From Beroe forskalii (taxonomy: Eukaryota; Ctenophora; Nuda; Beroida; Beroidae): a DNA stretch of 64,000 nt. The notes under the pieces were generated by a model, which had not been told where the DNA came from, ran no database searches, and saw nothing but the letters and a program-made list of their open reading frames with translations. The stretch spans positions 1 to 64,000 of the forward strand of contig WFMF01000056.1 of NCBI GenBank assembly GCA_011033025.1, given 5' to 3'. Shown here in pieces: positions 41,301 through 47,300 of this stretch. The translations under genes were made by a program, and so were the position numbers. How positions within the stretch are numbered: the first letter of the stretch is position 1; each line of letters begins with the position of its first letter.

Positions 41301-44300
41301 TCGGTCGTGTGTTCACAAGTTCATTGACACTGACCAATCAGTGCACGACACTCCACACGCAGGAAACACACGGCTGTTAAGATCTGGCCCGCCTATCCGG
41401 ACCTGTGTATCTACGTACCTGACGCATCCCGGGCAGTTAACGTTGCCACGTCCCTGGTGAACCAGGACACCAAGTTCCTGAGCGACATACGTCAGCAGTA
41501 CGAGAGGGTGCAGAGCGATCACACCAAGAGCATTCAGGTGGGGACACATTTAGGGGTTGTGCTTCTAAATCCTTCTCAACGACCCTTTGAAAAACATACT
41601 CCGAAAAAACGTGTTCAATCCGTTTTCTTCAAGAATTCCTGACTAATATTCTCTGCAAATGAAAAAAGATCGTTACATGTGAGCTATAATTAACTAACCA
41701 ATGAAAAACCTCAGTTTGTACATTAGAGTTCCCCTAACCAGAGTGCACTTGCGCTGCGCAATCCGTACTCAGGTCCTTGTTAGGGCAAACATGCGACTTT
41801 TTAATTTGAACACTTCAGAGGAAAGAAATCACTGCGTTGGAAGAGTGCAGGAAGAAGAAGTTCGTGTGTACTTCCCCCACACCTCCTCCCCCTAAACACT
41901 TGGGTATGTGTAGTGGAGAGGCCAGTTTAGCGGTTGTTAAACTTGAGATTTAGCATAGACCGTGTTTATACAAATATAACGGATCCAACTTTCACACTTC
42001 CCACATTAAAAACCCCTAAAATTGGTTACTAATTGGTTATAGCTAAAATGATAATTTGAAGGTAAAAATAATAATGTGTGTTTTAAATGGTGACTTCCCA
42101 TTCCTCCCATAAGTGGACCAGGGTTTTTCATGAGTTCACTTCACTGTGTGCCCTACCTACATACCCCTTGTGTCCTAGTCAGATGGTGATATCACATTAA
42201 CGTGTATATTTTCAGGAGTGAAAGTGTTTGAGAGCTACGATTTGAAGGAGGTAGTACCCCTCATCGACTGGAAACCCTTCTTCGACGTGTGGCAACTTCG
42301 AGGAAGGTATCCCAACAGATCCTATCCCAAGATATTCAACGACGCTACTGTAGGCACTGAAGCAAACAAAGGAAACTATTGTCATGGAGACTTGGCATAA
42401 TGGTATGCAATTCCGTTCTAGAAACTGGCTTACGATTGAATCTTCTAGAAGTTGATACTATTATCACTAAACACCATCTTCATTCGAAAAGGAAAGCTCT
42501 CTCGATCTCCCAAGCTGCAGTATTTCACGCAAAATCTTGAAGAGATTTCTGATCAAATTTAAATAAATAAATGTTTACTCCTTGTGACTCCCACGAGGCA
42601 CTGAAGCAAGGCGACTGTTTGATGAAGCTCAGGAGATGCTCTTACCTTAACCCTAACCCCACCAGGCGCTGAAGCAAGGCGACTGTTCGATGAAGCCCAG
42701 GAGATGCCCTAACCCTAACCCTAACCCCACCAGGCACTGAAGCAAGGTGACTGTTCGATGAAGCTCAGGAGATGCCATAACCCTAACCCTAACCCCACCA
42801 GGCGTGGAAGCAAGGCAACTGTTCGATGAAGCCCAGGAGATGCCCTAACCCTAACCCTAACCCCACCAGGCGTGGAAGCAAGGAGACTGTTCGATGAAGC
42901 TCAGGAGATGCCCTAACCCTAACTCTAACCCCACCAGGCGTGGAAGCAAGGAGACTGTTCGATGAAGCTCAGGAGATGCCCTAACCCTAACCCTAACCCC
43001 ACCAGGCACTGAAGCAAGGCGACTGTTCGATGAAGTCCAGGAGATGCCCTAACCCTAACCCTAACCCCACCAGGCACTGAAGCAAGGCGACTGTTTGATG
43101 AAGCTCAGGAGATCCCCTAACCCTAACCCCACCAGGCACTGAAGCAAGGTGACTGTTCGATGAAGCTCAGGAGATCCCCTAACCCTAACCCCACCAGGCA
43201 CTGAAGCAAGGCGACTGTTCGATGAAGCCCAGGAGATGCCCTAACCCTAACCCTAACCCCACCAGGCGTGGAAGCAAGGCGACTGTTCGATGAAGCCCAG
43301 GAGATGCCCTAACCCTAACCCTAACCCCACCAGGCGCTGAAGCAAGGCGACTGTTCGATGAAGCCCAGGAGATGCCCTAACCCTAACCCCACCAGGCGTG
43401 GAAGCAAGGCGACTGTTCGATGATGCCCAGGAGATGCCCTAACCCTAACCCTAACCCCACCAGGCGTGGAAGCAAGGCAACTGTTCGATGAAGCCCAGGA
43501 GATGCCATAACCCTAACCCTAACCCCACCAGGCGTGGAAGCAAGGCAACTGTTCGATGAAGCCCAGGAGATGCCCTAACCCTAACCCCACCAGGCGTGGA
43601 AGCAAGGCGACTGTTCGATGAAGCCCAGGAGATGCCATAACCCTAACCCTAACCCCACCAGGCGCTGAAGCAAGGCAACTGTTCGATGAAGCCCAGGAGA
43701 TGCCATAACCCTAACCCTAACCCCACCAGGCGCTGAAGCAAGGCAACTGTTCGATGAAGCCCAGGAGATGCCATAACCCTAACCCTAACCCCACCAGGCG
43801 TGGAAGCAAGGCAACTGTTCGATGAAGCCCAGGAGATGCCATAACCCTAACCCTAACCCCACCAGGCGTGGAAGCAAGGCGACTGTTCGATGAAGCCCAG
43901 GAGATGCCCTAACCCTAACCCTAACCCCACCAGGCGTGGAAGCAAGGCGACTGTTCGATGAAGCCCAGGAGATGCCATAACCCTAACCCTAACCCCACCA
44001 GGCGCTGAAGCAAGGCGACTGTTCGATGAAGCCCAGGAGATGCCCTAACCCTAACCCCACCAGGCGCTGAAGCAAGGCGACTGTTCGATGAAGCCCAGGA
44101 GATGCCCTAACCCTAACCCTAACCCCACCAGGCGTGGAAGCAAGGCGACTGTTCGATGAAGCCCAGGAGATGCCCTAACCCTAACCCTAACCCCACCAGG
44201 CACTGAAGCAAGGCGACTGTTCGATGAAGCCCAGGAGATGCCCTAACCCTAACCCTAACCCCACCAGGCGTGGAAGCAAGGAGACTGTTCGATGAAGCCC

Positions 44301-47300
44301 AGGAGATGCCCTAACCCTAACCCTAACCCCACCAGGCGCTGAAGCAAGGTGACTGTTCGATGAAGCTCAGGAGATGCCCTAACCCTAACCTAACCCCACC
44401 AGGCACTGAAGCAAGGCGACTGTTCGATGAAGCCCAGGAGATGCCCTAACCCTAACCCCACCAGGCACTGAAGCAAGGCGACTGTTCGATGAAGCCCAGG
44501 AGATGCCCTAACCCTAACCCTAACCCCACCAGGCGCTGAAGCAAGGCGACTGTTCGATGAAGCTCAGGAGATGCCCTAACCCTAACCCTAACCCCACCAG
44601 GTGTGGAAGCAAGGCGACTGTTCGATGAAGCCCAGGAGATGCCCTAACCCTAACCCCACCAGGCGTGGAAGCAAGGCGACTGTTCGATGAAGCCCAGGAG
44701 ATGCCCTAACCCTAACCCTAACCCCACCAGGCGCTGAAGCAAGGCGACTGTTCGATGAAGCCCAGGAGATGCCCTTACCCTAACCCAACCAGGCGCTGAA
44801 GCAAGGCGACTGTTCGATGAAGTCCAGGAGATGCCCTAACCCTAACCCTAACCCCACCAGGCGTGGAAGCAAGGCGACTGTTCGATGAAGCTCAGGAGAT
44901 GCCCTAACCCTAACCCTAACCCCACCAGACGCTGAAGCAAGGCGACTGTTCGATGAAGCTCAGGAGATGCCCTAATTCTAACCCCACCAGGCGCTGAAGC
45001 AAGGAGACTGTTCGATGAAGCCCAGGAGATGCCCTAACCCTAACCCTAACCCCACCAGGCGTGGAAGCAAGGAGACTGTTCGATGAAGCCCAGGAGATGC
45101 CCTAACCATAACCCCACCAGGCACTGAAGCAAGGCGACTGTTCGATGAAGCCCAGGAGATGCCCTAATCCTAACCCTAACCCCACCAGGTGCTGAAGCAA
45201 GGCGACTGTTCGATGATGCCCAGGAGATGCCCTAACCCTAACCCTAACCCCACCAGACGCTGAAGCAAGGAGACTGTTCGATGAAGCCCAGGAGATGCCC
45301 TAACCCTAACCCTAACCCCACCAGGCACTGAAGCAAGGCGACTGTTCGATGAAGCCCAGGAGATGCCCTAACCCTAACCCTAACCCCACCAGGCGCTGAA
45401 GCAAGGAGACTGTTCGATGAAGCCCAGGAGATGCCCTAACCCTAACCCTAACCCCACCAGGCACTGAAGCAAGGCGACTGTTCGATGAAGCCCAGTAGAT
45501 GCCCTAACCCTAACCCCACCAGGGACTGAAGCAAGGAGACTGTTCGATGAAGCTCAGGAGATGCCCTAACCCTAACCCTAACCCCACCAGGCGCTGAAGC
45601 AAGGCGACTGTTCGATGAAGCTCAGGAGATGCCCTAACCCTAACCTTAACCCTACCAGGCACTGAAGCAAGGCGACTGTTTGATGAAGCTCAGGAGATGC
45701 TGGGGGAGCTGGTGACGTCATTGCAAGGACGGGCTGTGATTGGTCTGTTCGCTGCTCACTCAACGGGTGATGACGTCATAGTCACACGTCCTGGAGAGGA
45801 AGATGTCACCTGCTTCATGTTGAGGCAGCAGGTGAGTGTCATACTCATAGGGAATTCTGCATTAATTGTTACTCCGCCAGAGACATTTACTTTAGTTACT
45901 ACTTTAGGTCTTTGTAATGAATGTGAGTGAAACCTATGACATTGGCTCAATAACTTCCGGCAAACCTGCATACCATGGCGAGCTCCACAATATCAATATG
46001 CCAGTGTAGATAAAACATAGCGAATATCATGGAACTCAACCCCAGGTGAAATCCGGTAAGGAAGACGTGTACCTGAACACCTCTGATTTCATTGGTCCTG
46101 AGGGGTCACGTGACCACATGGGCATGTTCTGTTGCTCGGTGTTCGGATCTGTTGCTATGGCGACGAAGTACGAGGAAACTGGGGATGACTATAACGGACT
46201 CATGGTTAAATCTCTTGCTGATAGACTGGTGAGTGAAGTGTACACCTTATACATTGGGTGTAGGATGGTAAACTTGTCATTGCAGACATGCTACATTTTG
46301 GAAGATATTTTATTCGGGGCTCGGGTTGTTTTCTCAGATTATACTGAAATCTTGAAATGCCCCAGACAAGTGAAGCTCATGTTGCACATCTAATAGCTGT
46401 TTATGATGCATGTTCTGTCTATAAGAGTATAATGTATGTGCCTGCAGGTGGAAGCCCTAGCGGAGCACCTACACCTGCGAGTTCGCACAGAGCTCTGGGG
46501 TTACGACAGGGCCGAGGAGCTGCACCCAGACGAGCTGCACGCGGTCAAGTACCAGGTACTCGTCGGAAATCTAAGTCAAAATTCTAAAAAATCCACTATT
46601 TTCTATTGAAAAACTAGTCAAGTCGACCAAAATTTTCAATTTCATATAAATATAATTATATGCGGACGTTCGCATTTGGGCAAACGCCCCTACGTCCGCC
46701 ACCGTCCGCATTGGTTAGACTCCCCCCCCCCTTTATGAATGGCACCTTGGTATAATCAATAATAATTGAGTTGGTCACGTTTTACATCGGCCATTGTACA
46801 ATCCTGAAAATGCAATAAGATACTGTTTAAGATGGTCCTGTTTAAGTTGGTTAAGTTGGTTTTTAACAAACTATTATGATAACAATGATGCGCCTGCTAG
46901 GCTTTCTGCCCCACTTTGAACCCAACTCCGAGGGAATAGCCACACCCTCTCTTTCAGGGAACTAGGCCTGCCCCCGGCTACCCCTCTCTTCCTGACCACA
47001 CCCTCTCTTTCAGGGAACTAGGCCCGCCCCCGGCTACCCCTCTCTTCCTGACCACACCCTCAAAGATCCCCTCTGGAGTCTCCTGGATGTTGCCGGGAAC
47101 ATTGGCGCCACATTGACGGACTCCTATGCTATGGAGCCGCCGCCGAGTGTCTGTGGGCTGTATATCGCCCACCCGGACTCCTCTTACTTCAACTTGGGGC
47201 AGGTGGCACGTGATCAGGTGGGTTGGGGAACGGGGGTGTTGACTGAAAATATCTTAAAATATGAATCTAGCGTGCGTTTTAGAATTAGATTACAGTTACA

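What the first reader, a model, noticed from the sequence alone, without database searches (positions are those of the whole stretch)
42598..45831. 46 tandem decoy 3' splice sites made of telomere-like CCCTAA and the start of MTR exon 23
Each 62/68-bp unit is a complete acceptor cassette: CTAAC branch-point consensus within CCCTAA repeats, a pyrimidine-rich CCCCACCAG, then the first 41 nt of the exon. Only the 47th copy continues into the real exon. Every upstream acceptor meets an in-frame TAA, because GAGATG is followed by CCCTAA. Spliceosomes usually favour the first AG after a branch point, so either the decoys are used and make non-productive mRNA, or something marks the last site. Copy number could set MTR output. 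The G-rich strand could also bind telomere proteins or form G-quadruplexes or R-loops.
Basis: partly seen in the sequence, partly recalled or inferred. Interest (0 to 1): 0.93.

Follow-up and report, generated by a model that had tools for sequence, protein, structure and literature searches.

The report
Splice-site minisatellite in methionine synthase gene
A methionine synthase gene carries 46 tandem copies of one of its own intron-exon borders, an extreme case of the boundary minisatellites called mirages in lancelets, and it raises the question of how splicing passes over dozens of sites that look as good as the real one.

Summary
46 units (34 of 68, 11 of 62, 1 of 67 bp) at 42598-45658 each carry the start of an MTR exon plus telomere-like repeats ending in AG; the 47th (45659) is the real exon. 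All 46 decoys give an early in-frame stop; 41 of 46 score at least as well as the real acceptor. The array is not alone: the window holds two old tandem MTR copies, and boundary-spanning arrays also sit at introns 6 and 9 of both, at intron 25, and at two donors of copy A. Such arrays are a described kind, "mirages", reported in lancelet genes where splicing is reported normal (passages of PMC3087553, PMC3902484). Most likely it is a neutral minisatellite spliced out through its last acceptor, favoured by exon definition: decoy 46 would make a 241-nt exon, the others at least 309, against a longest internal exon of 243 nt. Six of 48 introns, this one included, lack a GT donor and begin with the next exon's first 4-14 nt, probably an RNA-derived assembly error; this suggests mRNA joined to a GCACTG acceptor, as in the real exon and 12 of 46 decoys. 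Decoy use could not be measured.

The parts
42216..42353 (+). MTR copy B exon 22 (22nd exon identified here), ends ...GACGCTACTGTAG
42354..42365 (+). non-GT donor: first 12 nt of the intron equal the first 12 nt of exon 23
42598..45658 (+). 46 tandem decoy acceptor units
45659..45831 (+). real exon 23; its first 42 nt are the 47th copy
46940..47061 (+). 56-bp array, 2.2 copies, over the intron 25 acceptor (exon at 47014)
34505..35060 (+). 42-bp array over the copy B intron 9 acceptor: 12 decoys plus real site (exon at 35039)
10704..11042 (+). same boundary in copy A: 7 decoys plus real site (exon at 11021)
32845..32925 (+). 40-bp array over the copy B intron 6 acceptor: 1 decoy plus real (exon at 32908)
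9078..9193 (+). 40-bp array over the copy A intron 6 acceptor: 2 decoys plus real (exon at 9176)
37948..38064 (+). CCTCC-rich array with one CAG|AAAGTAA decoy, reaching 5 nt past the copy B intron 14 acceptor (exon at 38060)
12995..13060 (+). related array in copy A intron 14 with one CAG|AAAGTAA decoy; stops short of the acceptor (exon at 13068)
7980..8069 (+). 43-bp array, 2.1 copies, over the copy A intron 4 donor; TRF lists none at the copy B donor
15519..15590 (+). 37-bp array, 1.9 copies, over the donor after copy A exon 20 (intron starts at 15538)
29430..47217 (+). MTR copy B, 26 exons identified (outer ends not settled)
3964..15537 (+). MTR copy A, 20 exons (5' end not settled); equivalents of exons 21-26 not found in the window

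Best explanation
It is a mirage-type minisatellite: a tandem duplication of the end of intron 22 plus the first about 42 nt of exon 23, grown by unequal exchange or slippage at two scales (whole units and single CCCTAA hexamers). Pre-mRNA is spliced mainly from exon 22 to the last acceptor, and the array is removed as intron. The last acceptor wins because exon 23 is defined together with its own donor at 45831: decoy 46 would make a 241-nt exon and decoys 1-45 exons of 309-3234 nt, against a longest internal exon of 243 nt in this gene. Stray use of a decoy gives an early stop and a transcript probably removed by nonsense-mediated decay. Shown here: anatomy, stops, acceptor scores, sister arrays, presence of two of them in both paralogues. 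Inferred: preference for the last site, exon definition, decay of mis-spliced RNA, lack of function.
For: Boundary-spanning arrays at 6 acceptors in the two copies (4 distinct junctions), against 1.3 expected when random placements must avoid exons (P 0.003; the A and B arrays at introns 6 and 9 are not independent). The intron 6 and 9 arrays occur in both paralogues with different copy numbers (2 and 1 decoys; 7 and 12), although the paralogues differ at 68 of 391 fourfold sites, with 4 nonsynonymous against 98 synonymous codon changes in 19 exons: the reading frame is kept with decoys present. Edge unit 1 equals the exon over 43 nt, interior units are homogenised, and neighbours are more alike than chance (2.51 against 2.98 differences, P 0.008). 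Decoys carry TGA and TAG stops and T>A, T>V and R>Q changes, so they are not kept as coding sequence. Two lancelet papers describe the same kind of structure with normal splicing (passages read). The donor patches, if RNA-derived, are GCACTGAAGCAA here, matching the real exon and 12 of 46 decoys while the decoy majority is GCGCTGAAGCAA, and AAAGTGA at copy A intron 14, matching the real exon and not its decoy AAAGTAA.
Against: No transcript reads were available, so use of the last site is not measured. 41 of 46 decoys score at least as well as the real acceptor, and two stretches of about 200 nt are less structured than all of their 200 shuffles, so nothing local was found that hides the decoys. 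Five donor-like sites inside the array score 6.9-10.2 against a gene median of 8.8, so short decoy exons are possible. Unit 1, the first AG, has the same first 43 nt as the real exon, so the GCACTG patch does not tell the two apart. Donors are not enriched in arrays (2 observed, 1.3 expected, P 0.39). The species is not identified, so the link to the lancelet phenomenon is by structure only.
Confidence: 0.75

Rival explanations
1. The array is a regulatory poison-splice device: decoys are used at a steady rate, make stop-containing RNA, and unit number sets MTR output.
For: All 46 decoys give early stops and 41 of 46 score at least as well as the real site.
Against: Stops follow in 42 of 46 simply from the TAA of the hexamers in that frame. 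Boundary arrays of unrelated sequence at other junctions suggest a mutational habit. Published lancelet cases are said to splice normally.
Confidence: 0.1
2. Intron 22 itself was born by tandem duplication of an exonic AG|GC segment (the kind of model cited in PMC3087553), and the 14-nt repeat at both ends of the intron is the trace.
For: AGGCACTGAAGCAA occurs at both splice junctions and, outside the array, nowhere else on either strand of the window.
Against: Five other introns show a donor-side copy of the next exon's start, and the paralogue has GT at the same place in 3 of 3 cases that can be compared. No homology continues past the repeat (shuffle P 0.45 and 0.79).
Confidence: 0.06
3. 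The array is inflated or invented by the assembly.
For: Donor sequences suggest that the assembly has base errors.
Against: 34 distinct units among 46, a mixture of variants in order, unmixed edges.
Confidence: 0.06
4. The telomere-like G-rich strand is bound by telomere proteins or forms G-quadruplexes that act on transcription.
For: 23 G4 motifs on the minus strand, 111 CCCTAA hexamers in the array.
Against: The hexamer part also supplies ordinary acceptor features, runs are mostly 2-3 hexamers, and sister arrays in this gene have unrelated sequence.
Confidence: 0.03

Closest known systems
Mirages of lancelets (Adh3, globins BflGb6 and BflGb9, TnC, PGBD5)
   Same: Tandem units that span an intron-exon boundary, acceptor or donor side; homogenised interior with an excluded edge; variable copy number; AG signals kept in many units (passages of PMC3087553 and PMC3902484)
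   Different: 46 decoys here (the passages give 6 and 3 units for two BflGb6 haplotypes and 3 for PGBD5; none that I saw for Adh3 or TnC); intronic half is telomere-like; several boundaries of one gene and of its paralogue are affected; species unknown
Minisatellite giving multiple splice donor sites in the interferon-induced human 6-16 (IFI6/G1P3) transcript
   Same: Minisatellite that supplies many splice sites
   Different: Donor, not acceptor. Only its title was seen, in a reference list; the gene name is recalled
Internal tandem repeats of human genes in segmental duplications (PMC2812944)
   Same: Minisatellite expansion in duplicated genes; at the exon-intron boundary it may give new introns (passages)
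   Different: Units average 30 bp repeated about 4 times; exon and intron lengthening rather than a train of decoy acceptors

Membership tests
Mirage (boundary minisatellite) | tandem units include an intron-exon boundary | tested here: met
Mirage (boundary minisatellite) | exonic part of the units copies the adjoining real exon, which is intact | tested here: met
Mirage (boundary minisatellite) | concerted evolution inside, edge units excluded | tested here: met
   unit 1 identical to the exon over 43 nt, none of units 2-46 over 42 nt; neighbour similarity P 0.008
Mirage (boundary minisatellite) | copy-number instability between haplotypes | not testable with these tools
   one assembly only; the intron 9 array differs between paralogues (7 and 12 decoys)
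Mirage (boundary minisatellite) | regular splicing not disturbed | tested here: inconclusive
   no RNA data; reading frame kept, purifying selection on exons 1-19, donor patches fit the real exon but not it alone
Mirage (boundary minisatellite) | host is a cephalochordate (all cases that I saw) | not testable with these tools
   no genome is held for the window; no eukaryote genome collection on hand
GC-AG intron | GC donor with a strong flanking consensus (AG|GCAAGT, recalled) | tested here: not met
   TAG|GCACTG; it equals the next exon's start, as in five other non-GT introns
Interstitial telomeric repeat | long uninterrupted TTAGGG/CCCTAA run | tested here: not met
   mostly 2-3 hexamers per unit, each unit broken by exon sequence; no run of two or more elsewhere in the window

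The most novel reading that the evidence does not exclude
A minisatellite of 46 competent-looking acceptors acts as a length-dependent dial on MTR expression: each added unit adds a competing site leading to a stop, so methionine synthase output varies with copy number between individuals and cells.
Probability: 0.07. Interest if true: 0.85.

Novelty: new member of a known kind. Interest (0 to 1): 0.45.

Why it matters
The array is a natural experiment on 3' splice-site choice: 47 nearly identical acceptors in a row, 41 of the 46 decoys scoring at least as well as the real one, differing mainly in distance to the next donor. Counting junctions per unit would measure the reach of exon definition in vivo. 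The paralogue pair also suggests that boundary arrays can persist in a gene under strong purifying selection.

Tried and rejected
Whole-genome search was not possible, as no genome is held. Intron birth by tandem duplication looked attractive from the 14-nt repeat at both junctions, but was marked down once six of 48 introns proved to carry the next exon's start at the donor, with GT in the paralogue in 3 of 3 comparable cases. Weak points of the assembly-error reading are told in the full report. RNA structure hiding the decoys: no sign of it, two stretches of about 200 nt fold worse than all 200 shuffles each. A stronger real acceptor: rejected. Homogenised paralogue exons: rejected, fourfold sites differ at 68 of 391. 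The unconstrained array-placement test gave the opposite sign (6 observed, 12.1 expected, P 0.99), because random placement drops long arrays onto exons; only the exon-avoiding test seems informative. Rfam: no match at gathering scores. A paper search for RNA-read polishing damage at donors and one for CCCTAA at acceptors listed no title that looked on point; those papers were not opened. PMC2809761 (passages) was read for intron gain and not used further.

Mended after checking: one search set the end of copy A exon 20 at 15541, 4 nt too far; it is 15537. One search used 15542 for that donor instead of 15538; the array 15519-15590 spans both. Exon 20 was left out of the paralogue counts for that reason (5 differences in 175 nt).

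Full report
What is there. One search splits 42598-45658 into 46 units (34 of 68 bp, 11 of 62, one of 67). Each unit is the first about 42 nt of an exon followed by telomere-like hexamers (usually two or three CCCTAA) and, in most, CCCCACCAG. The 47th copy at 45659 continues into a 173-nt exon with donor at 45831. The joined neighbouring exons match PDB methionine synthase (2o2k, E 3.6e-57; human, as I recall) without a gap at this junction. Unit 1 differs: it is preceded by unrelated sequence, ends in GAG (the other 45 decoys in CAG) and matches the real exon over 43 nt, which none of units 2-46 does over 42 nt.

Splicing grammar. With the frame-keeping cut TGTAG|GCACTG, all 46 decoys reach a stop 5-17 codons after the junction (42 TAA, 3 TGA, 1 TAG) and the real site does not; with the nearby GT (ACT|GTAG) all 47 sites run into stops. 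On a matrix made from the 43 other acceptors of the two gene copies, decoys score 1.2-12.5 (median 10.7), the real acceptor 8.8; 41 of 46 decoys score at least as well; 1.6% of 760 other intronic AGs reach the decoy median. So acceptor sequence does not mark the last site. Geometry may: exon lengths to the donor at 45831 are 173 nt for the real site, 241 for decoy 46, 309 for decoy 45, up to 3234 for decoy 1, while the 24 internal exons of this gene copy measure 85-243 nt. Two stretches of about 200 nt are less folded than every shuffle. Five donor-like sites inside the array (8.1 three times, 10.2, 6.9; gene median 8.8) could in principle make short decoy exons.

The same gene has more of these. 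Using a bacterial MetH frame and then reading borders by eye, I modelled two tandem MTR copies on the + strand: A (3964-15537, 20 exons) and B (29430-47217, 26 exons). TRF arrays cover acceptors at introns 6 and 9 in both copies and 22 and 25 in B, plus intron 14 in B with a 5-nt margin, and donors after exons 4 and 20 of A. Six acceptors (8-nt margin) stand against 1.3 expected when random placements must avoid exons (P 0.003); without that condition the test has the opposite sign (12.1 expected, P 0.99), because long arrays then land on exons; donors are not enriched (2 against 1.3, P 0.39). A and B arrays at introns 6 and 9 are homologous, so the six are four independent junctions. Intron 9 has 7 decoys in A and 12 in B; intron 6 has 2 and 1. 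A and B differ at 68 of 391 fourfold sites, with 98 synonymous against 4 nonsynonymous codon changes over 19 exons: the duplication is old and both copies have been constrained. That both held decoys all that time is the simplest reading, but independent origin is not excluded.

Array turnover. 34 distinct units among 46; neighbours are more alike than in shuffled order (2.51 against 2.98 differences, P 0.008); most interior units share bases (for example C at column 23 in 44 of 46; units 1 and 8 have T) that differ from the exon. Changes in the exon-like part include T>A, T>V, R>Q and stops, as expected without coding constraint. The 62- and 68-bp units differ by one hexamer.

The donor. 42 of 48 introns (44 of MTR, 4 of an aminotransferase gene at 20.4-22.3 kb) start with GT and share 0-4 nt with the next exon. 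The GOT2 name rests on Pfam Aminotran_1_2 for its last exon and on recall, and its borders were placed by eye. The six that lack GT (A14, A19, B9, B22, GOT2 introns 2 and 3) share 7, 9, 14, 12, 4 and 6 nt with it (summed match, random pairing: 0 of 20000). In the three comparable MTR cases the paralogue has GT. The simplest reading is that these bases came from spliced RNA during assembly or polishing. Against it: all 48 acceptors are AG, so the error would be one-sided; the genes concerned are all on the + strand, so a left-right bias of software could do this, but that is untested; the GOT2 intron 2 match of 4 nt is no longer than the best GT intron; and A14 looks like an insertion rather than a replacement, since GTATGG follows 18 nt further on. 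If right, the true donor of intron 22 is probably GT, and the patch GCACTGAAGCAA records the mRNA: it equals the real exon and 12 of 46 decoys, unit 1 among them, whereas the decoy majority is GCGCTGAAGCAA. The A14 patch AAAGTGA equals its real exon and not its decoy AAAGTAA. The B9 patch equals its exon too, but part of it also occurs in the intron of copy A, so it is not decisive.

Known relatives. PMC3087553 (passages read) calls such structures mirages, reports them in Adh3 and two globin genes of lancelets, with RT-PCR and earlier Adh3 data suggesting undisturbed splicing, unit lengths of 10-72 bp (Adh3) and 150-160 bp (globins), haplotypes with 6 and 3 units, and edge exclusion. PMC3902484 (one passage read) adds PGBD5 and TnC. 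The present array meets the structural features; host and splicing could not be tested. That the window is lancelet DNA is a guess from this resemblance. In the listings (titles and starts of abstracts) I saw none that describes a CCCTAA case; most listed papers were not opened and most subscription papers are not in that library, so absence from print is not shown.

Verdict. A real and striking array, with more units than any mirage whose copy number I saw, but of a described kind. Its value is as a ready test of how far exon definition reaches. A regulatory role is possible and untested.

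Noticed in passing
3964-15537 and 29430-47217: Two old tandem MTR copies; copy A keeps 20 exons under strong purifying selection, but equivalents of exons 21-26 (the C-terminal part) are not found in the window. How copy A stays constrained without them is unexplained.
   Followed up: partly
12886, 15141, 20883, 21131, 34343, 42354: Six of 48 introns lack GT and begin with the start of the next exon (4-14 nt); probably RNA-derived assembly error.
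   Followed up: yes
5786-7845 and 31035-31591: 24-bp CCACTCACCACT-like arrays of about 2.1 and 0.6 kb end 1-2 nt before the exon after intron 3 in both MTR copies, extending its pyrimidine tract.
   Followed up: no
49890-50703: Dense TCCAATGGA-like repeats on both strands, palindromic in layout, just upstream of a reverse-transcriptase-like open stretch (51279-51863; RVT_1 E 6e-6, below its cut-off).
   Followed up: no
56718-58940 (-): One long open frame with DnaJ, TPR, UBA and RRM matches.
   Followed up: no
42562-42571: AATAAATAAA lies in intron 22 just before the array; with read-through of exon 22 into a nearby in-frame stop it could serve an intronic polyadenylation isoform (sequence).
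   Followed up: no
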